DNA of 45,616 bases from an uncultured Sphingopyxis sp. (GTDB taxonomy: Bacteria > Pseudomonadota > Alphaproteobacteria > Sphingomonadales > Sphingomonadaceae). This document shows positions 2,024-19,518 of the stretch, in pieces (the stretch's first letter is position 1; the number at the start of each line of letters is the position of its first letter). The notes beneath the pieces were generated by a model. That model was not told the origin of the DNA. It saw only the letters and a list, made by a program, of their open reading frames with translations, and searched no databases. Location: NCBI GenBank assembly GCA_937873425.1, contig CALMYE010000209.1, positions 1 to 45,616 of the forward strand, in the 5' to 3' direction. The position numbers and the translations under genes were made by a program.

Positions 2024-4036
2024 CTATTCGCCCGCTTCGGCGTGCGACCGGCCGGGCGGCGTTTCGCCCTCCGGGCCTTCGGCTTCCCAGGCGATGAAGG
2101 CGATGTCGTCGAGCATCACCTCCTTCGCGTCGCGGATGCGCAGCAGCGGGCGCAGCGGCAGCGCCGCCGCATCGGTGCCGAGTTCGAGATCGAAGCGGAA
2201 GGGTTGCCAGCCCATGCCGGACAGCCTTGTGCTGCCGAAGCCGCGCGCCGGCGCGGTTTCGAGCGCGCGCAGGCGGTTGCTGCCCTTCGGCTGCTGCTGC
2301 ACCAGCGCCTCGATCTCCGCCTTGTCGCCGGTGCGGACCCAGCCCGAAAGCGTGTAGCGCCGCGCCCCGGTCGCGCGGAAGAAGGTCTTGGGCGCCAGCA
2401 CCATCGACGCGCCGTCGGCGCGCAGCCGCAGCGCCTGCCGCCCGCCATGCCCGGGCGCGATCAGGTCGGCGTTCGCGCCGAGGATCGCCCAGCTGCGGTC
2501 GCTCGCGTCGCCGTGGCGCATCGCCTCGAAATCGCCGCGCATCAGCAGGTCGCGGCCCGCCGGCCCCGCTCCCGCGGCGGCGCAGGGGGCCGACGGGGCA
2601 TGGAGATCGTAGCGATAGATCGCCAGACGCGACCCCGCCGTCGCCGGGCAAAGCCGCGGCGCGGTTGCCGGCGCCCCCGGCACGATCACGCCATGTCCGC
2701 CGACGATGCCGATCGCCGTGCCGCGCTCGGCCGACAGGTCGATGATCCGCCGCAGCGCCGCCTGCCGCATGTCGCCGACCGCCGGGACGGGGCGATAGTC
2801 GAGGATCTGGATCGGCACGATCTCGGCGCGGAACAGCGTGTCGCCGTCCATCCAGACCTTGAGCGCGAAGGCTGCGTGGGTTTCGGGAAAATATTGGTCG
2901 AACAGATAATTGCCGAGCGAATAGGCGATCAGCCGCCCCTTGTGGAGTTCGAGCCCGTGCGCGACATGCGGATGGTGCGAGACGACGAGCGCGGCGCCCC
3001 TGTCGATCGCGAGCTTCATCCGCCGCTCGCTGATCGCGGTGGGGCGGGCGCTATATTCGCTGCTGCCGTGATATTGCACGATCGGCGCGTGGCCCGCCTT
3101 CGCCTCGCGCGCGACGGCGGCGGCGATATTCTCGTCGCTGCCGAAGGCCGCGCCGCCCTTCTTCGCCTCGGCGACCTGGTTCGGCTGGGCGGTGCCCTTC
3201 CAGCCGACGAAGCCGAGCATCGCATAAAGGTTGCCGCCGACCGCGATCCGCGCGGCCTTCAGCGCCTCGGCCTCGTTCGGCCCGGCGCCCGACCAGGCGA
3301 TCTTCGCGCGGTCGAGCGCGGCGGTGGTCGCCGCGAGCCCCGGTTCGACATAGTCGTAGACATGATTGTTGCCGAGGCTGACATAGTCGATGCCGGCGTC
3401 CGCAAGCGCCTGCGCTGCGTCGCTATGCGTGTGGAAGACGACCGACTTGTCGGGCGCATTGGCAAGCTCGCCCGCCGCGAGCACGGTTTCGAGGTTGAGC
3501 GAGGCGAGGTCGGACCCGGCGAAATAGGGGCGCATCGGCGCGATCAGCGCTGCCATGTCGGCGGCGCGGCTTTCGGGCCGGATCAGCGCGCGCTCGCCCC
3601 AGATCGGCTCCTCGAAGCGGCGGCCGAGCATCGTGTCGCCGCCGAAGAACATCTCGACCCGCCCCGGCGCCCGCGCGACCAGCTCGACCGGCGGCAGCGC
3701 ATGAGCGCCGCCCGGTCGCGCCACTTCGGCGGCGCCGAAGGTGAAGACCGCGTCGAAGATGCCGGGTCCCGTGATACTGAGCTGATACTGATCGGCGTCG
3801 GGGACGGTCGCGACGATCGTCCCGTCGGCGGCGATGCTGGCGGGCGCGCCGTTGATGCGCGCATCGAGCGTCGCGGGATCGACGGTGCCGCCGACGACGG
3901 CGAGGCGGCCGGTGACCGTCTGCGATGCCGCTTCGGCGGCAACTGTCGTCGCGGCGAAGGGGGCGCATTGTGCCGCGCCGAAAGTCAGCGCGAGCGCCGC
4001 TGCGGTCGATCCGAAAACCTTGCCGCCGTGCCGCAT
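2024..4036 (-). CDS. CapA-family (poly-gamma-glutamate capsule type) metallophosphoesterase-like exported protein
   Basis: 670 residues from the ATG at 4036, chosen because AGGAGA lies about 9 bases upstream; the longer open frame would run into the VOC gene. A hydrophobic N-terminus (about 1-30) ending in Ala-rich sequence suggests export. Residues ~35-120 look like a small beta-sandwich. The CapA/PgsA domain (~128-400) follows, with FFGGDTMLG (130-138), NLET (181-184), LGNNH (221-225) and SHHPHVAHG (353-361). From ~480 there is an extra region ending in MLDDIAFIAWE that resembles a galactose-binding-like beta-sandwich. CapA proteins are tied to poly-gamma-glutamate capsules in Bacillus, where a GGT-type enzyme (CapD) is the partner. 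Here it is the last gene of an operon with two gamma-glutamyltransferases and no capB/capC synthesis genes, so a degradative or handling role is inferred. The CapA assignment is firm; the activity is unknown. Confidence 0.87.
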   Translation of the reverse strand: MRHGGKVFGSTAAALALTFGAAQCAPFAATTVAAEAASQTVTGRLAVVGGTVDPATLDARINGAPASIAADGTIVATVPDADQYQLSITGPGIFDAVFTFGAAEVARPGGAHALPPVELVARAPGRVEMFFGGDTMLGRRFEEPIWGERALIRPESRAADMAALIAPMRPYFAGSDLASLNLETVLAAGELANAPDKSVVFHTHSDAAQALADAGIDYVSLGNNHVYDYVEPGLAATTAALDRAKIAWSGAGPNEAEALKAARIAVGGNLYAMLGFVGWKGTAQPNQVAEAKKGGAAFGSDENIAAAVAREAKAGHAPIVQYHGSSEYSARPTAISERRMKLAIDRGAALVVSHHPHVAHGLELHKGRLIAYSLGNYLFDQYFPETHAAFALKVWMDGDTLFRAEIVPIQILDYRPVPAVGDMRQAALRRIIDLSAERGTAIGIVGGHGVIVPGAPATAPRLCPATAGSRLAIYRYDLHAPSAPCAAAGAGPAGRDLLMRGDFEAMRHGDASDRSWAILGANADLIAPGHGGRQALRLRADGASMVLAPKTFFRATGARRYTLSGWVRTGDKAEIEALVQQQPKGSNRLRALETAPARGFGSTRLSGMGWQPFRFDLELGTDAAALPLRPLLRIRDAKEVMLDDIAFIAWEAEGPEGETPPGRSHAEAGE

Positions 4037-14438: not shown

Positions 14439-14606
14439 ATGTCGACCCGATCCCCCAGAGGTCGGACCCGGGGTCTTGGTGCCGGTATCCTCCTCTTTGG
14501 CGGCAAGATTATCGAGCCGTCCCGGCCCGCAAAGCCGCAATTTCATCGGAGCGCTATAGCCTTGGGTTATGGGGTGCGGGCCGCGTGCCGGCGTGCCGGC
14601 GGACGA

Positions 14607-15017
14607 TCAGTCCGCGGCGATGCGCCGCGCGGTGTCCTTCACCAGCGCGATCATGTTGGGGACGCCCTGCGTCCGGTTCGACGACAGCTGGCGCGTCAGC
14701 TCGAAGGGAGCGAGCGCGGCGGCGATGTCCATGTCCGCGACCTCGGCCGCCGGCTTGTCCTGCACCGCGCTCAGCACCAGCGCGACGATGCCCTTGGTGA
14801 TCGCGGCATTGCTGTCGGCAAGGAAGTGGAGGCGCCCGTCGTCCCGCGGCACCGGATAGACCCAGACGCTCGCCGAGCAGCCGCGCACAAGCGTCGCGTC
14901 GGTCTTGAGCGCGCCGGGCATCGGTTCCAGTTCGCGCCCGAGCTCGATCAGCAGGCGATAGCGGTCGTCGCCGTCGAGGAAATCATATTCTTCGAAAATG
15001 TCGGAGAGGCTGCGCAT
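14607..15017 (-). CDS. sufE: SufE-family cysteine-desulfurase activator
   Basis: 136 residues from the ATG at 15017 (MRSLSDIFEEYDFLDGDDRY), the length normal for SufE. An upstream ATG at 15131 would add 38 residues that start inside an inverted repeat, so I reject it. The Cys in LVRGCSASVWVYP matches the SufE active-site cysteine that accepts the persulfide sulfur from SufS, and the C-terminal GLxxxLSxxRxxGxPNM-type block appears as LTRQLSSNRTQGVPNM. It should act in cytosolic Fe-S cluster assembly. No other suf gene is in the window. It is separated from the small psp-cluster genes by a 27-bp inverted repeat, so it probably has its own transcript. No strong Shine-Dalgarno is visible. Confidence 0.9.
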   Translation of the reverse strand: MRSLSDIFEEYDFLDGDDRYRLLIELGRELEPMPGALKTDATLVRGCSASVWVYPVPRDDGRLHFLADSNAAITKGIVALVLSAVQDKPAAEVADMDIAAALAPFELTRQLSSNRTQGVPNMIALVKDTARRIAAD

Positions 15018-15073
15018 GGGGTGCGCCAGTGGCAGATTTGCGGGGCGGTGGGAAGGGGGCGTTCCAGAGAATT

Positions 15074-15182
15074 CCGCATCCCCGAGCGAAGACGAGGGGC
15101 TCGTTCGAGCGAAGCGAGAACCGCTTGTCAAACCGCCTCGCCTTCGCTCGGCATGGCCCCTCGTCTTCGCTCGGGGATGCGG
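15074..15182. repeat. Inverted repeat (CGAGCGAAGACGAGG family)
   Basis: Perfect 27-bp arms at 15074-15100 and 15156-15182 face each other across 55 bases; the core is CCCCGAGCGAAGACGAGGGGC. The spacer itself contains TTCGAGCGAAGCGAGAA, a part copy of the same motif. It follows the last gene of the expanded psp operon and could form its 3' end. The arms also produce false short frames running into sufE. Confidence 0.8.
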
Positions 15183-15198
15183 GAGTGTTGGATACCCG

Positions 15199-15450
15199 TT
15201 ACAGATCGACGCCCGCCGCGATCGCTTCCAGCTTGCGCAGCCGTTCCTTGAGGTCGGCGATCTCGATGCGCGAGCCCGCGTGCGGGACGTGCGCGTCGTG
15301 CCCTGCGGCGACCGCGGCCTGGCCGGCGGCGAGTTCGTCGCGCTTGAGCTGTATCCAGTCGCGCCAGCCGCGCAGCGCGACCAGGCTGACGATGGTCAGC
15401 GCGCTCAATGCGACCGCGGCGGCGGTGAGGTCGGGAGTGAGGAAGGCCAT
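15199..15450 (-). CDS. Small membrane/coiled-coil protein, last of psp cluster (PB5)
   Basis: 83 residues from the ATG at 15450, preceded by AAAGGAG. One transmembrane helix (about 7-27, TAAAVALSALTIVSLVALRG), then a charged segment and a short predicted coiled coil ending IEIADLKERLRKLEAIAAGVDL. The topology, an N-terminal membrane anchor with a cytosolic helix, is that of PspB. The C-terminal LKERLRKLEAI resembles the start of the module shared by its four neighbours, but the EI-x-x-LR ending is lost. It stands 23 bases from the next gene upstream. Function unknown; a PspB-like partner of PspA or PspC is inferred from context. Possibly a decayed or diverged member of the set. Confidence 0.75.
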   Translation of the reverse strand: MAFLTPDLTAAAVALSALTIVSLVALRGWRDWIQLKRDELAAGQAAVAAGHDAHVPHAGSRIEIADLKERLRKLEAIAAGVDL

Positions 15451-15473
15451 GAGCGTTGCTCCTTTGCCGGCGT

Positions 15474-15734
15474 TCAGATCTTGCTGCGGTCGCGCAGGCT
15501 TTCGATCTCCTGATCGAGGCTGACCGCGCGGTTGTTGTCGGTGGCGATGCGTTCGAGCACCTGGATGCGCTCCTTGAGCGCGCGGATCTCGGTCTGCAGC
15601 GCCTTGGTCTCGGCGTCGTTGCCGGCGACATAGTCATGGCCGTGAGCGTCGCGGCGAATCCCGTGCTTGGCGCGGATAATGCTGCCGATCGTCACGATGA
15701 GGACGATGCCGATGACCATTTCAAACGGGCCCAT
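15474..15734 (-). CDS. PspB-like small membrane/coiled-coil protein (PB4)
   Basis: 86 residues, ATG at 15734 with AAAGGAT upstream. Transmembrane helix at about 4-20 (FEMVIGIVLIVTIGSII), followed at once by RAKHG, a motif also seen after the membrane helix of PB1 and PB2. The cytosolic part ends in the shared module: LKERIQVLERIATD, then EIESLR before a short tail. PspB in other bacteria is a one-helix inner-membrane protein with a cytosolic coiled coil that works with PspC to recruit PspA. A similar role is inferred for this one; no catalytic features. Gaps to neighbours are 36 and 23 bases. Confidence 0.82.
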   Translation of the reverse strand: MGPFEMVIGIVLIVTIGSIIRAKHGIRRDAHGHDYVAGNDAETKALQTEIRALKERIQVLERIATDNNRAVSLDQEIESLRDRSKI

Positions 15735-15770
15735 GGGGAAGATCCTTTCTGCGTGTCTCTTGTCGTTCGT

Positions 15771-16034
15771 TCAGTTGAGCGGCGCGTCGCGCAGCTTTTC
15801 GATCTCGTCGGCGACGTCGATGCCCTTGTCGGTCACGATGCGTTCGAGGACGCGCACGCGCTGTTCGAGCCGTTCGGTGTGCGCCGCATATTGCGCCGCC
15901 TTCTCGGCCGTTTCGTTGGTGATCGCCTTGAGCTGCCGTTCCTTGAACTTCAGGTGGCGCTCATAGGCGGCGTAGCCGATGCCGAGGATGATCGGCAGCC
16001 CGACCACGATGAAGACGATCAGGGTTGCGCTCAT
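15771..16034 (-). CDS. PspB-like small membrane/coiled-coil protein (PB3)
   Basis: 87 residues from the ATG at 16034 (AAGGGA upstream). Transmembrane helix ~4-22 (TLIVFIVVGLPIILGIGYA), basic stretch ERHLKFKERQLKA, an alanine-rich helix, and the module LEQRVRVLERIVTDKG followed by DEIEKLR. Of the extra genes this one most resembles ordinary PspB in layout. It lies 13 bases after the next gene upstream, so the transcript is shared. The name PspB would be tempting, but the gene directly after pspA is a better positional pspB. Confidence 0.84.
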   Translation of the reverse strand: MSATLIVFIVVGLPIILGIGYAAYERHLKFKERQLKAITNETAEKAAQYAAHTERLEQRVRVLERIVTDKGIDVADEIEKLRDAPLN

Positions 16035-16047
16035 GCTCTTCGTCCCT

Positions 16048-16365
16048 TCAGTTCGCCGGGCGCCGCAGCGCCTCGATCTCGTGGCTCAGCCGGTGGCCCT
16101 CGTCGGTGACGATGCGTTCGATCACCGCGAGCCGGTCCTTGACCGAGCCGAGCTCGGCGCGCAGCTGGGCGTTTTCCTGGCTGATCAGCTTGACGCGCTC
16201 CATCGCCTCGTCGCTGGTCTTCGGATAGATCGCCTTGCCCCAGCTGTTTTCCAGCGGATAGCCGTGCTTGATGCGCAGCCAGGTGGTGAAGACCCAGCCG
16301 GCGACACCGAAGATGCCGATGATCGCTGCGGTGGGAGCGAGGGCCTGCAGGACGTCGAGATTCAT
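16048..16365 (-). CDS. PspB-like small membrane/coiled-coil protein (PB2)
   Basis: 105 residues, ATG at 16365. Transmembrane helix ~10-30, then FTTWLRIKHGYPLENSWGKA, matching PB1 closely (FTTWIRAKHGYPVENEWGGT). A heptad-like region with Gln/Glu/Leu follows and ends in KDRLAVIERIVTDEGH with EIEALR close to the C-terminus. PB1 and PB2 therefore form a closer pair, probably from duplication, with a conserved segment right at the membrane face. Role inferred as for PspB. No known enzymatic residues. Confidence 0.83.
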   Translation of the reverse strand: MNLDVLQALAPTAAIIGIFGVAGWVFTTWLRIKHGYPLENSWGKAIYPKTSDEAMERVKLISQENAQLRAELGSVKDRLAVIERIVTDEGHRLSHEIEALRRPAN

Positions 16366-16394
16366 TGTCTTTATCCTATGTTCGTTCGATCGGC

Positions 16395-16694
16395 TCAGCG
16401 CAGCTGGTCGATCTGGTCGGCGAGCTGCGCGGCCTGGCCGTGGTTTTCGGTGGCGATGCGCTCGAGCACCGCGATCCGCTCCTCCAGCCGGCCGATCTGG
16501 CCCGCGAGCTTGGCATTGTCGCCTTCGAGCAGCTTGATTTTTCGATCAGCGTCGGGGTCGGTTCGATGAACCGTGCCGCCCCATTCATTCTCCACCGGAT
16601 AGCCGTGCTTGGCGCGAATCCAGGTGGTGAACATCCAGCCCATCACCGACAGGGCGATGATGGCGATGACGAAGTTCGGACCGGCGAAGTTCAT
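16395..16694 (-). CDS. PspB-like small membrane/coiled-coil protein (PB1)
   Basis: 99 residues from the ATG at 16694, with AGGGAG placed 7 bases upstream; the longer open frame from 17057 only shadows pspC. Transmembrane helix ~5-22 (GPNFVIAIIALSVMGWMF), then TTWIRAKHGYPVENEWGG, then a coiled coil (IKLLEGDNAKLAGQIGRLEE) ending in RIAVLERIATENHG and DQIDQLR at the very C-terminus. It follows pspC by 29 bases. The closest relative in the window is PB2. A membrane-bound adaptor in the Psp response is the simplest reading. Confidence 0.84.
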   Translation of the reverse strand: MNFAGPNFVIAIIALSVMGWMFTTWIRAKHGYPVENEWGGTVHRTDPDADRKIKLLEGDNAKLAGQIGRLEERIAVLERIATENHGQAAQLADQIDQLR

Positions 16695-16723
16695 GTGGCG
16701 TCTCCCTGTTGCCGAAAGCCCGT

Positions 16724-17104
16724 TCAGCGCAGCGCGTCGATCTCGTCGGCGAGCCGGCGGTTGTGGCTGGTGTAATATTGCTCGATGTCGGCGAGCCGGC
16801 GGTCGATGTCGCGGAAGCGCGAGCGGATGTCGCGGGTCGAGGCGCTGGGGTTCGACCGCACACCCTGCCAGAATTTCGCCTCCTCGTTCGAGCCGTAGAG
16901 CGCGAAGGGCTTGGGCGTTCCCATCCAGGCGACCAGCCAATAGGCGATCAGCGTCCAGGGAAAGCCGCCCATCAGCGTGATCAGCACCGCGCCGACGCGG
17001 ACCCACAGGACGTCGACGCCGGTATAATCCGCGATTCCCGCGCACACGCCGCTCCATTTGGCGTTCTGCTTGTCGAGGTAGAATTTGGTGCGGGTGGCAG
17101 ACAT
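16724..17104 (-). CDS. pspC: Phage shock protein C, with C-terminal coiled-coil module
   Basis: 126 residues, ATG at 17104 one base after the pspB stop. The PspC domain occupies ~5-65: KFYLDKQNAKWSGVCAGIADYTGVD and VLWVRVGAVLITLMGG followed by a membrane segment around WTLIAYWLVAWMG. The last ~45 residues are a helical extension, STRDIRSRFRDIDRRLADIE, closing with DEIDALR, the same ending as in the small PspB-like genes downstream. PspC is the inner-membrane sensor that, with PspB, relieves PspA's inhibition of PspF on envelope stress. The shared C-terminal module suggests that PspC and the PspB-like proteins pair with one another, or all bind PspA, through it. Confidence 0.93.
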   Translation of the reverse strand: MSATRTKFYLDKQNAKWSGVCAGIADYTGVDVLWVRVGAVLITLMGGFPWTLIAYWLVAWMGTPKPFALYGSNEEAKFWQGVRSNPSASTRDIRSRFRDIDRRLADIEQYYTSHNRRLADEIDALR

Positions 17105-17105
17105 C

Positions 17106-17384
17106 TCAGTTCCTCCGGTTTTTCATGTTTTCAAGCTGCGCCAGCTCTTCATCGCTGCGAACCGCGGGGCGGAAGTCGGGATGGTCGGCGCTGATGATGC
17201 GTTCGACGGTGTGGAGCCGGTTTTCGAGCCGGCGGGCGGTGTCGTAGAGTTCGTCGAGCAGCTGCTCATCCTCTCCGGTCAGCGTCTTGGCCTGTTTCCA
17301 CTTGGTGACATAGTGGAGGATCAGCCAGGGCAGACCGAGGAAGAGGGTGCCGATGACGATCGGGACAATGATGATCTCTTCCAT
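17106..17384 (-). CDS. pspB: Phage shock protein B
   Basis: 92 residues from the ATG at 17384, 12 bases after pspA. N-terminal transmembrane helix (EEIIIVPIVIGTLFLGLPWLI), then HYVTKWKQAKTLTGEDEQLL, then the coiled-coil LYDTARRLENRLHTVERII. This is the usual PspB design and position. The stretch LENRLHTVERIIS is a weaker form of the module found in the five downstream proteins, after which the C-terminus diverges (DEELAQLENMKNRRN). With PspC it transmits envelope damage to PspA. Confidence 0.9.
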   Translation of the reverse strand: MEEIIIVPIVIGTLFLGLPWLILHYVTKWKQAKTLTGEDEQLLDELYDTARRLENRLHTVERIISADHPDFRPAVRSDEELAQLENMKNRRN

Positions 17385-17396
17385 CGGTCCGGCTCC

Positions 17397-18059
17397 TTAT
17401 TTCTTGGCCTGCGCGGCCTTCAGCGTGGCGAGTTCCTCGGCGACCTTGTCGGCGGCCTGCAGCTCGGCGAACTCTTCGTCGAGCGACTTCTTGTAGCCCA
17501 GGCCCGCGGCTTCGGCACGGCCTTCGGCCTCGTCGACGCGGCGTTCGAGGATTTCGAAGCGCGAGAAAGCGTCCTCGACGCGGTCGCCGTTGGTCATTTC
17601 GCGCAGCTTGAAGCGGTTCTCGGCGCTTTCGAGGCGGTTGACGACGCTCGACTGGCGCGCGCGCGCTTCGCTGAGCTTCTTCTGCAGCTTGGCGATGTCG
17701 GCCTCATAGCCCTTCAGCGCATCGTCGAGCGTCGCGATCTCGGCCTTCAGCCGTTCGGCCATGTCGCCGGCCTTCTGCTTTTCGACGAGCGCGGCGGTGG
17801 CGAGGTCCTCGCGGTCCTTCGACAGCGCGAGCTCGGCCTTTTCCTTCCAGCTGTCCTGCAGCCCTTCGAGCTTGGCGATGTGGCGGCGCATTTCCTTCTG
17901 GTCCGCGATGGTGCGGGCGGCCGACGCGCGAACCTCGACCAGCGTCTCGTTCATCTCGAAGATGATCTGGCGGATCATCTTTTCGGGATCTTCGGCCCGG
18001 TCGAGCAGGTCGGTGACGTTGGCGGCGATGATGTCGCGGGTGCGTGAAAAGATACCCAT
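17397..18059 (-). CDS. pspA: Phage shock protein A (PspA/IM30/ESCRT-III-like)
   Basis: 220 residues, ATG at 18059, with CAGGAG nine bases upstream. The start MGIFSRTRDIIAANVTDLLD is the amphipathic membrane-binding helix; the rest is alpha-helical coiled coil with family blocks EDPEKMIRQIIFEMNETLVEVR and KAELALSKDREDLATAALVEK. Length is normal. PspA binds stressed inner membrane as oligomers and, in unstressed cells, inhibits the activator PspF. It is the second gene of a nine-gene operon, after a 57-aa small ORF, with a hairpin between. Confidence 0.96.
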   Translation of the reverse strand: MGIFSRTRDIIAANVTDLLDRAEDPEKMIRQIIFEMNETLVEVRASAARTIADQKEMRRHIAKLEGLQDSWKEKAELALSKDREDLATAALVEKQKAGDMAERLKAEIATLDDALKGYEADIAKLQKKLSEARARQSSVVNRLESAENRFKLREMTNGDRVEDAFSRFEILERRVDEAEGRAEAAGLGYKKSLDEEFAELQAADKVAEELATLKAAQAKK

Positions 18060-18098
18060 TTGACTAAACTCCTGACGAAAACTCGGGGCTTGAAAATG

Positions 18099-18142
18099 CT
18101 GGTGCCGGGGCGGGGCAAGGGGGGAGAGTGCCCCGGCACCAG
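18099..18142 (-). terminator. Hairpin between the 57-aa ORF and pspA (attenuator- or processing-type)
   Basis: Perfect 13-bp stem CTGGTGCCGGGGC (18099-18111) with GCCCCGGCACCAG (18130-18142), loop 18 bases. Read on the - strand, the stem begins 6 bases after the small ORF's stop and is followed by CATTTTCAAG, a short T run. It may be a partial terminator or a stem that protects one side of a processed mRNA; the weak T run argues against full termination. Confidence 0.55.
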
Positions 18143-18148
18143 TGCCGG

Positions 18149-18322
18149 TCAGACCATCGGGCCGACCGCCGGGGTGTTCGCAGCGGCCGCCAGCGCCATG
18201 CCGCCCGGGGAAGCGGCGATGTCGAAGGCGATCTTGGGCTGGTCGATCACGCCGACGAGGATCGCCAGAGCGCCGGCCGCGCTGAGCGCGAAGGTCGTGG
18301 CCTGGGCAAATATCGTCTTCAT
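18149..18322 (-). CDS. 57-aa small membrane-type protein, first gene of psp operon
   Basis: The frame reads ATG at 18322 to TGA at 18149-18151. It begins MKTIFAQATTFALSAAGALA, continues ILVGVIDQPKIAFDIAASPG and ends NTPAVGPMV. A strong Shine-Dalgarno (GGAAGGA, 6-7 bases before ATG) and the position about 47 bases downstream of the predicted sigma-54 start site support real translation. Residues ~5-25 form a hydrophobic helix (membrane anchor or uncleaved signal), and the remainder is Ala/Pro-rich. No recognised family. It would be made whenever the psp operon is induced, so a stress-linked membrane peptide is inferred. Confidence 0.68.
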   Translation of the reverse strand: MKTIFAQATTFALSAAGALAILVGVIDQPKIAFDIAASPGGMALAAAANTPAVGPMV

Positions 18323-18378
18323 GATCGTCCTTCCCTTTTCGCTGCACCGGTGCGTGATGCGCCGGTTCGCATGATGCT

Positions 18379-18396
18379 ATGCAGGGGGCGTGCCAA
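18379..18396 (-). promoter_or_regulatory. Sigma-54 promoter of the psp operon
   Basis: On the - strand the sequence reads TTGGCACGCCCCCTGCAT, a near-exact match to TGGCACG-N4-TTGCA/T, with GG and GC separated by exactly ten bases. Transcription should start about 12 bases past the GC, near 18369, giving a leader of ~47 bases before the 57-aa ORF. PspF-type activators require such promoters, and pspF is the divergent neighbour. Confidence 0.88.
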
Positions 18397-18459
18397 TTGC
18401 TCCGAAGCGCGGAAATCGGCCTAACTTCACGCGCGATTCGCCTTTTATGCCGAAAGCGC

Positions 18460-18496
18460 TTGCCAATCAGCGGGAAATTTTGCCAATGATTGGGAA
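18460..18496. promoter_or_regulatory. Tandem candidate PspF-binding sites
   Basis: Two 17-bp repeats, TTGCCAATCAGCGGGAA (18460-18476) and TTGCCAATGATTGGGAA (18480-18496), stand 20 bp apart, i.e. near two helical turns. The second is an almost perfect palindrome (TTGCCAAT / ATTGGGAA). They lie about 90-130 bases upstream of the predicted psp start, the usual enhancer distance, and the second reaches the pspF start codon, so binding could also repress pspF. Confidence 0.7.
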
Positions 18497-19518
18497 TGGA
18501 GCGCGAAACGCAGTTCATCGGCCAGTCGGCGGCCTTTCAGGATGCGGTCGAGCGCACCAGCCTGGCGGCGGCGCTCGACCGCCCCGTGCTGGTGATCGGC
18601 GAGCGCGGCACCGGCAAGGAGCTGATCGCCGAGCGCCTGCACCGGCTGTCGGCGCGCTGGGACCGGCCCTATGTGATCATGAACTGCGCCGCCATGCCCG
18701 AGACGCTGATCGAGAGCGAATTGTTCGGGCACGAGGCGGGCGCCTTCACCGGCGCGACGCGCAGCCGCGCGGGCCGCTTCGAGGAGGCCGATGGCGGCAC
18801 ATTGTTCCTCGACGAACTGGCGACGATGTCGATGGGCGCGCAGGAGCGGCTGCTGCGCGCGGTCGAATATGGCGAGATCACCCGCGTCGGCGCGTCGCGC
18901 CCGATCCGCGTCGACGTGCGCATCGTCGCGGCGACCAACGAGCATCTGCCCGCGCTGGTCGACGACAATCGCTTTCGCGCGGACCTGCTCGACCGGCTGT
19001 CGTTCGAGGTCATCACCCTGCCCCCGCTGCGCGCGCGCGAGGGCGATATCGAGGTGCTCGCCGAATATTTCGGACAGCGCATGGCGGCGGTGCTCGGCTG
19101 GGACGAATGGCCCGGCTTCGGCCCGCGCGCGCTCGCGGCGATGGAGGGCCACCAATGGCCGGGCAACGTCCGCGAACTCAGGAACGTCATCGAGCGCGCC
19201 ATCTATCGCTGGGCCGACCCCGAAAAGCCGGTCGATGCGCTGACCTTCGACCCCTTCGCCAGCCCCTGGCAGCCGGCGGTGCGGGCGGGCGCGCCGAAGA
19301 TCGATGCCGCCCCGCCGGCCGCGTCCGACCCCGCCCCGGCCGCGCCGCCGTCCGGCCCGGTCGCCGACCTGCGCGCCGCAGTCGACGCCTATGAGCGGCA
19401 GATATTGTCCGACACCATGGCGCGCTGCCGCTACAACCAGAAGATCGCGGCCGAGGCGCTCGGCCTCAGCTACGACCAGATCCGCCACGCGCTGAAGAAG
19501 CACGGGCTCAACCAGTAG
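18496..19518 (+). CDS. pspF: Psp operon transcriptional activator PspF
   Basis: 340 residues from the ATG at 18496; a TTG two codons earlier is possible and no good Shine-Dalgarno marks either. No receiver domain: the AAA+ domain starts directly (Walker A GERGTGKE at ~35-42), includes the sigma-54-contacting loop GAFTGA (82-87), Walker B GGTLFLDEL, arginine-finger region FRADLLDRLSF and WPGNVRELRNVIERA. A Pro/Ala linker leads to the C-terminal Fis-type helix-turn-helix (YNQKIAAEALGLSYDQIRHA). It activates sigma-54 RNA polymerase at the divergent psp promoter and is held inactive by PspA in unstressed cells. Start overlaps the second tandem site, suggesting autoregulation. Confidence 0.95.
   Translation: MERETQFIGQSAAFQDAVERTSLAAALDRPVLVIGERGTGKELIAERLHRLSARWDRPYVIMNCAAMPETLIESELFGHEAGAFTGATRSRAGRFEEADGGTLFLDELATMSMGAQERLLRAVEYGEITRVGASRPIRVDVRIVAATNEHLPALVDDNRFRADLLDRLSFEVITLPPLRAREGDIEVLAEYFGQRMAAVLGWDEWPGFGPRALAAMEGHQWPGNVRELRNVIERAIYRWADPEKPVDALTFDPFASPWQPAVRAGAPKIDAAPPAASDPAPAAPPSGPVADLRAAVDAYERQILSDTMARCRYNQKIAAEALGLSYDQIRHALKKHGLNQ

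What the first reader, a model, noticed from the sequence alone, without database searches (positions are those of the whole stretch)
15199..18059. Expanded Psp operon: five extra PspB-like genes, four of them sharing a C-terminal module with PspC
After pspA-pspB-pspC come five more small genes, all with one N-terminal membrane helix and a cytosolic coiled coil. PB1-PB4 end in a module of the form L-x-x-R-hydrophobic-x-V-hydrophobic-E-R-I-x-T-(D/E), then a variable gap, then (D/E)-(E/Q)-I-(D/E)-x-L-R (for example VLERIVTDKG and DEIEKLR in PB3). PspC carries the same ending (DEIDALR) on an extension that ordinary PspC need not have, and PspB has a weaker form. PB1, PB2 and, in part, PB4 also share RAKHG or FTTW-x-R-x-KHGYP next to the membrane. 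The repeated ending suggests a common docking surface, for instance a set of interchangeable PspC/PspA adaptors tuned to different envelope stresses.
Basis: partly seen in the sequence, partly recalled or inferred. Interest (0 to 1): 0.82.

Follow-up and report, generated by a model that had tools for sequence, protein, structure and literature searches.

The report
Expanded phage-shock operon of sphingomonads
Sphingomonad bacteria carry, in their membrane-damage (phage shock) operon, a set of extra small membrane proteins that look like hybrids of two known sensor proteins, PspB and PspC, which suggests that this bacterial family has enlarged the membrane docking complex of the response.

Summary
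The five extra genes are real. They lie with 13-36 nt gaps behind pspA-pspB-pspC in a Sphingopyxis-like genome. The arrangement is a trait of the family: all 82 psp loci that I read from it (36 genera) have 1-8 such genes, and 75 of 76 scorable loci keep the order PB1-PB2-PB4-PB5. None were found in 16 loci of five sister families; 3 of 3 loci of a sixth carry a PB4-like gene. The PB1-PB4 tail is not generic coiled coil: it joins a PspB-type coil to a PspC-type tail, clearest in PB2 and PB3, and module matches cluster at psp loci. PB5 lacks the module. One sigma-54 site precedes pspA in 72 of 82 loci, none lies inside the operons, so co-expression is likely. A short membrane ORF sits between that site and pspA in 60 of 69 loci. 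Best mechanism: PB1-PB4 are membrane tethers that join PspB/PspC and present PspC-type tails to PspA. Co-loss with pspA and survival of PB genes after pspB loss fit this; binding is untested. PspB duplicates in psp operons were already noted in print (2024). New variant of a known kind.

The parts
18490..19518 (+). pspF, sigma-54 enhancer-binding activator, divergent from the operon (ORF from TTG 18490; ATG at 18496)
   Evidence: TIGR02974 E 4.5e-140, 466.6 bits, above cut-off 443.55
18380..18396 (-). sigma-54 type -24/-12 element TTGGCACG-N4-CTGCA, single site for the operon
   Evidence: only match in the window at <=1 mismatch, 0.12 expected; a site of this kind upstream of pspA in 72 of 82 family loci, one per locus; 2 matches in 1.02 Mb background, both beyond the operons
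18149..18322 (-). 57-aa ORF with one hydrophobic segment, between the sigma-54 site and pspA
   Evidence: no family match; an ATG-ORF with a hydrophobic segment in 60 of 69 family loci with a leader of at least 120 nt, 3 of 69 on the reverse strand
17397..18059 (-). pspA
   Evidence: TIGR02977 270.3 bits, above cut-off 242.95
17106..17384 (-). pspB
   Evidence: TIGR02976 91.4 bits and Pfam PspB 97.6 bits, above cut-offs
16724..17104 (-). pspC, canonical length with ordinary C-terminal tail
   Evidence: TIGR02978 121.6 bits, model positions 2-121 of 121
16395..16694 (-). PB1, single-TM protein with PspB-type coil; module about 16401-16508; shares juxtamembrane motif with PB2
   Evidence: class found in 53 of 82 family loci
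16048..16365 (-). PB2, single-TM protein with PspC-type tail; module 16066-16164
   Evidence: 29 of 34 homologues match the PspC model; module match; in 69 of 82 family loci
15771..16034 (-). PB3, single-TM protein, PspB-like coil plus PspC-like tail; module 15792-15890
   Evidence: 25 of 30 homologues match PspB and 23 of 30 match PspC models; second-best PspB match of the whole genome, below the cut-off; class in 71 of 82 family loci
15474..15734 (-). PB4, single-TM PspB-like protein; module about 15495-15599
   Evidence: TIGR02976 E 6.8e-5, below cut-off; 7 of 29 homologues match PspB, 4 of 29 PspC; in 76 of 82 family loci
15199..15450 (-). PB5, single-TM protein with its own conserved coil (RIEIADLKERLRKLEAIAAGVDL), not module-bearing; last gene of the array
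   Evidence: in 74 of 82 family loci and last in all 74; no PspB/PspC similarity
15074..15190 (.). long palindromic dispersed repeat just behind PB5; whether it ends the transcript is unknown
   Evidence: window 15070-15200 folds at -92 kcal/mol, z -10.3; matches at ten places in the genome, this one included

Best explanation
PB1-PB4 are paralogous inner-membrane adaptors of the Psp response that arose in or near the Sphingomonadaceae lineage from PspB/PspC-type parts. Each has one N-terminal membrane helix, a coil like that of PspB and, clearest in PB2 and PB3, a C-terminal tail like that of PspC, facing the cytoplasm. All are made from the one PspF/sigma-54 promoter together with pspA, pspB and pspC. 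Proposed working: after stress-induced transcription the PB proteins pack with PspB and PspC through the shared coil, and their PspC-type tails add docking sites for PspA. This pulls PspA off PspF (positive feedback) and anchors PspA assemblies on the membrane. Shown here: homology of the modules, family-wide conservation, tight gene spacing with one promoter-like site, co-loss with pspA, retention when pspB is lost. [quoted passage not shown] Inferred: topology, co-transcription, membership in the PspBC complex, PspA binding by PB tails. PB5 belongs to the same array but is a different protein whose role I cannot assign beyond a membrane partner.
For: Module homology beyond coiled coil: outgroup-built PspB/PspC profiles against PB proteins and heptad-block shuffles. 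NCBIfam: PspC matched by 29 of 34 PB2; PspB by 25 of 30 and PspC by 23 of 30 PB3. A PB2 profile searched over 386 class genomes picked up, outside the family, an ordinary PspC tail in a psp operon (G326). Spacing: 549 gaps, median 23 nt, 496 at most 60 nt, 13 above 150 nt. Promoter-like site upstream of pspA in 61 of 82 loci at the stricter score within 450 bp, none in 230 kb of operon body on the same strand; 72 of 82 at the looser score within 900 bp, one per locus, none inside an operon. Family trait: 82 of 82 loci read; 91 of 99 evenly drawn family genomes have a module match. Co-loss: of the 8 genomes without a match, 6 lack pspA and pspC, 1 (G718) has psp at a contig edge, 1 (G695) is a real exception; 9 of the 10 one-match genomes were tested and all 9 have pspA. 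One of these 9, G710, proved to have PB5 but none of PB1-PB4; Fisher p on the 17 tested is 0.002 with it counted as a module carrier and 0.007 without. No PspB above the cut-off exists in G173, G133 and G288, while pspC and 3 to 6 PB genes remain. The PspC last helix has the PB-like form E-I-x-x-L-R in 81 of 82. Literature model: PMC5596341, passages.
Against: The window's PB proteins stay far below the curated PspB/PspC cut-offs (best 24.1 against 90 and 23.1 against 51.7 bits). PB1 and PB4 tails match PspC weakly (median 4.4 and 7.6 bits, 13 of 56 and 20 of 81 at >=10; PB4 4 of 29). The shuffle control is imperfect: it keeps the first 30 residues and whole 7-residue blocks, so shuffled PspB still scores. 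G695 keeps pspABC with no PB gene, and G710 has PB5 alone, so PB1-PB4 are dispensable there. The module also occurs on a soluble zinc-ribbon protein and on PB4-like proteins away from pspA. The PspC tail change is probably one or two ancestral events, and the one outgroup PspC that has it (f3) comes from a locus without PB genes. Loss of pspB is seen in one genus only.
Confidence: 0.5

Rival explanations
1. PB1-PB4 act as PspB-like silencers: their coils cap the PspC cytoplasmic tail in the off state and give negative feedback after induction, rather than recruiting PspA.
For: PB3 and PB4 align to PspB over most of its length, TM segment included; PB1, PB3 and PB4 score better to PspB than to PspC (medians 11.6/4.4, 14.9/8.6, 9.4/7.6); the title of a 2016 paper in the reference list of PMC5596341 states that PspB-PspC cytoplasmic contacts silence the response (title seen only); pspB can be lost when PB genes are present.
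Against: PB2, the most conserved class (53% mean column identity against 39% for PB4 and 45% for PB3), matches PspC in 29 of 34 and PspB is not among its matched families; a silencer would not need a PspC-type tail.
Confidence: 0.25
2. The PB proteins are effectors of their own (membrane stabilisers or partners of other envelope machines) that merely use a Psp-type coil to homo-oligomerise; co-transcription with pspA only gives them the same trigger.
For: Fixed orthologous classes with different N-terminal halves; the module occurs on a zinc-ribbon protein and on PB4-like proteins not next to pspA; PspB and PspC themselves have effector roles in Yersinia (PMC5596341, passages).
Against: Sequence match to the PspC tail in particular; clustering at psp loci; co-loss with pspA.
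Confidence: 0.2
3. The shared ending is generic coiled coil with no special relation to Psp.
For: Three of six weak profile hits outside the family look like chance coils or wrong-frame ORFs (G547, G541, G667, judged by eye); PDB hits of the PB2 profile are unrelated coils; the window's PB1 also weakly matches other coils in Pfam.
Against: Shuffled controls, NCBIfam counts and genome-wide clustering.
Confidence: 0.05

Closest known systems
PspB (TIGR02976 / Pfam PF06667)
   Same: Size, N-terminal membrane helix, position in the psp operon, coil R-(I/L)-x-x-(L/V)-E-R-I shared with PB1, PB3, PB4
   Different: The window's PB proteins fall below the curated PspB cut-offs; PB1-PB4 carry a further C-terminal E-I-x-x-L-R helix that PspB lacks; PB1/PB2 have a juxtamembrane KHGYP element
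PspC C-terminal cytoplasmic tail (TIGR02978 positions about 73-121)
   Same: PB2 and PB3 of the window align to the last position of the PspC model; same R-x-x-x-x-E-x-x-x-T-(S/D) then L-x-x-E-(I/L)-x-x-L pattern
   Different: No PspC membrane domain (PF04024) was matched in PB1-PB5
PspB duplicates and PspC fused to a divergent C-terminal PspB in psp operons (Ravi et al. 2024, PMC11237479, section 17 read)
   Same: Same idea: extra PspB copies in the operon and a PspB-like PspC tail
   Different: Section 17 gives one example accession for each and no family-wide array, orthologous classes, shared PB/PspC tail, promoter or leader ORF; the string 'sphingo' does not occur in the main text; its figures, web tables and supplements were not seen, and the organism of the example accession was not checked
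E. coli pspD/pspE/pspG accessory genes
   Same: Small accessory genes of the psp regulon (pspG passages; the rest recalled)
   Different: No PspD, PspE or PspG family was among the matches of PB1-PB5

Membership tests
PspB family | score above the curated cut-off of TIGR02976 (51.7) or PF06667 (25.6) | tested here: not met
   window proteins: PB3 20.2 and 18.6 bits, PB4 23.1 and 12.6 bits, PB1 14.2 (TIGR02976 only), PB2 and PB5 no listed match
PspB family | single N-terminal TM helix followed by a cytoplasmic coil | tested here: met
   hydropathy and charge pattern like PspB; topology itself inferred
PspB family | encoded in a pspF-pspA operon | tested here: met
   by position and spacing, transcript not measured
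PspC family | PspC membrane domain PF04024 | tested here: not met
   no PF04024 match in PB1-PB5
PspC family | C-terminal cytoplasmic tail of TIGR02978 | tested here: met
   met for PB2 (29 of 34) and PB3 (23 of 30) at E<=0.01, below the family cut-off; weak for PB4 (4 of 29) and PB1 (13 of 56 at >=10 bits); not met for PB5
PspF/sigma-54 regulon | -24/-12 promoter next to pspF | tested here: met
   18380-18396 in the window; 72 of 82 loci; by sequence only
Psp regulatory complex | physical interaction with PspA, PspB or PspC | not testable with these tools
   needs two-hybrid or co-purification; structure prediction off

The most novel reading that the evidence does not exclude
Sphingomonadaceae replaced the two-protein PspB/PspC switch by a multi-subunit inner-membrane assembly. 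Several ancient, separately conserved PspB/PspC hybrids plus PB5 and a short leader membrane peptide form one hetero-oligomeric platform; the PspC tail has been re-matched to it, pspB itself has become dispensable in some lineages, and different PB subunits receive different stress inputs.
Probability: 0.25. Interest if true: 0.75.

Novelty: new variant of a known kind. Interest (0 to 1): 0.55.

Why it matters
How PspB and PspC read membrane damage and hand PspA over is an open question studied mainly in enterobacteria. A whole family that keeps up to eight natural PspB/PspC-like variants in one operon is a ready-made set of domain swaps: it shows which parts are kept together (coil plus PspC tail), which can be lost (pspB in three genomes), and gives orthologous subunits whose single deletions could separate sensing from PspA docking. 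It also gives a context to a set of unnamed small genes in sphingomonads.

Tried and rejected
Rejected: (1) that the PspC tail is an unusual extension (outgroup PspC). (2) That the module is generic coiled coil. (3) That PB5 carries the module: its similarity to either outgroup profile is near shuffle level; it scores a median 9.1 bits to the module profile, best match on positions 3-19 only. (4) That PB genes are recent lineage-specific tandem copies: PB1 (22 of 22), PB2 (34 of 34) and PB5 (33 of 33) each make one bipartition (support 0.70, 0.89, 0.997), PB3 33 of 49 and PB4 35 of 40; the PB3 class probably holds more than one ancient type. The classes were assigned by profile before the tree, so this is not an independent test.

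Led nowhere: structure prediction (switched off); PDB sequence search (no PspB/PspC relative among the matches); Rfam (0 matches at 14500-18700); sigma-70 and terminator scans (at chance); literature on psp expression in sphingomonads (listings and abstract starts only, nothing relevant seen). The profile part returned only zeros, probably because of clashing program options; done again. The codon-position test of the leader ORF was weak: 2735, 2378 and 3284 differences at positions 1, 2, 3 among 17 loci.

Sampling limits: the 100 fetched psp loci were my choice from the hit lists (297 genomes), not a random draw; 25 were placed by PB2 hits and 75 by pspA hits, and I chose several because PB2 was weak or absent. 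The evenly drawn figures are 91 of 99 and 228 of 297. Eight of the 387 PB calls in the 82 loci score below 60 bits, the lowest 39. Outgroup profiles left out one second PspB-like ORF (L097) and four low-scoring PspC-like ORFs. Leader-ORF counts leave out 3 loci with leaders under 120 nt and 10 without a site. Co-loss was tested on 17 of the 99 genomes (all 8 without a match and 9 of the 10 with one match). The 150 module matches are the best listed, not all; the weaker unlisted ones were not placed, and 21 of the 74 genomes have a single listed match.
Full report
What is there. On the minus strand, behind a divergent pspF, the window holds a 57-aa ORF, pspA, pspB, pspC and five further small genes PB1-PB5, with 13-36 nt between the genes behind pspC. 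PspF, PspA, PspB and PspC all pass curated cut-offs. The family (f1 below) also holds Novosphingobium and Sphingomonas records by the same match of contig lengths (G137, G259, G277); I call it Sphingomonadaceae, a name that is my inference. Of 16 same-genus loci 13 have the same five-gene array, 2 lack PB4 and 1 has an extra PB3. Each PB protein has one N-terminal hydrophobic segment with K/R only behind it, as in PspB, so a cytoplasmic C-terminus is inferred.

Is the shared ending real? In NCBIfam, PB3 of the window matches PspB (3.4e-5) and the PspC tail (2.8e-4), PB4 matches PspB (6.8e-5), PB2 the PspC tail (0.0063), PB1 PspB weakly (0.041) and PB5 nothing. Over homologues, 29 of 34 PB2 match PspC; 25 of 30 PB3 match PspB and 23 of 30 PspC; 7 of 29 PB4 match PspB and 4 of 29 PspC. 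Profiles built only from 19 PspB and 19 PspC proteins of other families, with shuffles of 7-residue blocks behind residue 30 as control, gave these numbers at >=10 bits. To PspB: PB1 42 of 56 (14 of 168 shuffles), PB2 7 of 72 (5 of 216), PB3 91 of 104 (27 of 312), PB4 34 of 81 (11 of 243), PB5 0 of 74 (0 of 222). To PspC: PB1 13 of 56 (0 of 168), PB2 59 of 72 (1 of 216), PB3 25 of 104 (1 of 312), PB4 20 of 81 (1 of 243), PB5 0 of 74 (1 of 222). So the ending is a PspB-type coil followed by a PspC-type tail, with PB2 leaning to PspC and PB1, PB3 and PB4 to PspB. None of the window's PB proteins reaches a curated PspB or PspC cut-off, so they are not filed as members of either family.

Correction of the finding. 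PspC of the window aligns from position 2 to 121 of the 121-position PspC model, and the 19 outgroup PspC proteins carry the tail (by eye). The tail is ordinary. What is special is its last helix: E-I-x-x-L-R in 81 of 82 PspC of the family, E-L/F in 18 of 19 outgroup. Family PspC tails score higher to a PB1-PB4 module profile than those of the other families without f8 (medians 7.8 and 0.1 bits), while PspB shows the reverse (11.8 and 15.2). These are counts of sequences, not of events; the one outgroup PspC with E-I comes from a family without PB genes (f3).

How widespread. PB2 is found in 228 of 297 genomes of the order; the 14 matched genomes of other families stand at 3.4e-5 or weaker, while matches in the window's family reach 7e-67. 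I read 101 psp loci (window included). All 82 loci of the family, from 36 genera, have 1-8 PB genes after pspC: PB1 in 53, PB2 69, PB3 71, PB4 76, PB5 74; all of PB1-PB4 in 41; at least one of them in 81. None of 16 loci from five other families (f2, f3, f5, f6, f7) has one, though L097 (f5) has a second PspB-like ORF and L100 (f2) a PspC-like fragment; 3 of 3 from f8 have a PB4-like and an extra PspC-like gene. Order PB1-PB2-PB4-PB5 holds in 75 of 76 scorable loci, and PB5 is last in 74 of 74. PB1, PB2 and PB5 each form one clade of all their sampled members. The classes are thus probably old and kept apart.

Does the module mark psp loci? A 33-position profile of the module matched 91 of 99 evenly drawn family genomes at E<=0.01. 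The best 150 matches come from 74 genomes; in the 53 with more than one listed match they form one cluster, and all 71 in the 31 genomes whose psp locus I had mapped lie in it. In the window's own genome the four matches of the PB2 profile are PB1-PB4. The PB2 profile in 386 class genomes gave six matched genomes outside the family: one match is an ordinary PspC tail in a psp operon, two are PB4-like proteins near dut- and coaBC-like genes with pspA about 80 kb away, and three look like chance coils or wrong-frame ORFs (by eye). Inside the family one exception appeared: a zinc-ribbon protein (DUF6487 22.5 bits, cut-off 24) ending in the module, in 4 of 99 genomes.

Co-loss and substitution. 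Of the 8 family genomes without a module match, 6 have neither pspA nor pspC, G718 has psp at a contig edge, and G695 has pspABC followed directly by the next conserved gene, so PB genes were lost or never present there. Nine of the 10 one-match genomes were tested and all nine have pspA; one of them, G710, has PB5 but none of PB1-PB4, so its weak match (0.0028) is not a true module. Fisher p on the 17 tested genomes is 0.002, or 0.007 with G710 moved. G253, the one family genome without pspA, also has no PB2 or PspB match. Three genomes of one genus have no PspB above the cut-off anywhere and no room for it between pspA and pspC, yet keep pspC and 3 to 6 PB genes.

Regulation. A -24/-12 element lies at 18380-18396, the only one in the window (0.12 expected). 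In the family it is found upstream of pspA in 61 of 82 loci at a strict score within 450 bp, with none in 230 kb of operon body on the same strand, and in 72 of 82 at a looser score within 900 bp, one per locus, against 2 matches in 1.02 Mb of background, both beyond the operons. Gaps between the genes have a median of 23 nt, 496 of 549 at most 60 nt. Co-transcription is therefore likely, though no transcript was measured.

Mechanism. In Yersinia, PspB and PspC form an inner-membrane complex; [quoted passage not shown] In E. coli the PspC zipper region is needed for PspA contact (PMC3068692, passages read); that paper places this region in the periplasm or in two topologies, unlike the Yersinia work. 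PB2 and PB3 carry that kind of tail on a single-TM body, PB1 and PB4 a weaker form. The simplest working is that they join PspB/PspC oligomers and multiply PspA docking sites. The chief rival is PspB-like silencing of PspC. The data do not decide between them; I give 0.5 and 0.25.

Prior knowledge. Ravi et al. 2024 (PMC11237479; section 17 read, other passages by term) state that PspB duplicates occur in psp operons and that some PspC carry a divergent C-terminal PspB. In the listings of my searches of the held library I saw no description of the sphingomonad array; subscription papers are not held and supplements were not seen, so this is a limited negative. The array is best called a new variant of a known kind.

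Noticed in passing
window 18149-18322 (-): 57-aa ORF with one hydrophobic segment between the sigma-54 site and pspA. ATG-ORFs with a hydrophobic segment occur there in 60 of 69 family loci with a leader of at least 120 nt (3 of 69 on the reverse strand); 17 loci share a type ending mostly in V-E-L-A, most with purine-rich stretches before the ATG. Possibly an overlooked first gene of the psp operon.
   Followed up: partly
window 15074-15190: Near-perfect long palindrome behind PB5 (-92 kcal/mol, z -10.3); matches at ten places in the genome, this one included, so a REP/MITE-like dispersed element.
   Followed up: partly
L143 2728-3117 (G030 C6) and loci L144-L147: Soluble zinc-ribbon protein (DUF6487-like, just below the cut-off) ending in the PB-type module, away from the psp locus, in 4 of 99 family genomes.
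   Followed up: partly
L138 and L140 (hit ORFs 2793-3023 and 2837-3076 on the reverse-complemented loci): PB4-like single-TM protein followed by a second small TM-coil ORF near dut- and coaBC-like genes (by eye) in two genomes of another alphaproteobacterial family; pspA lies about 80 kb away.
   Followed up: partly
L052, L055, L059, L114, L115, L117 (gap before PB4): A further ORF of 40-54 aa with one hydrophobic segment and an R-D-R-P-type motif before PB4 in genus g2.
   Followed up: no
L080, L082, L120: psp operons without pspB in one genus; no PspB above the cut-off elsewhere in those genomes.
   Followed up: yes
window 14607-15131 (-) and L235: A SufE-like gene (recognised by eye) follows the array in the window, and a like gene directly follows pspC in G695, which has no PB genes.
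   Followed up: no
G000 contig C281 1068-1232: A second PspC-domain match (model positions 4-59, below the cut-off) elsewhere in the same genome.
   Followed up: no
family genomes G685, G692, G702, G708, G713, G715: Six family genomes have no pspA and no pspC match at all: the whole Psp system appears lost or unsequenced there.
   Followed up: partly
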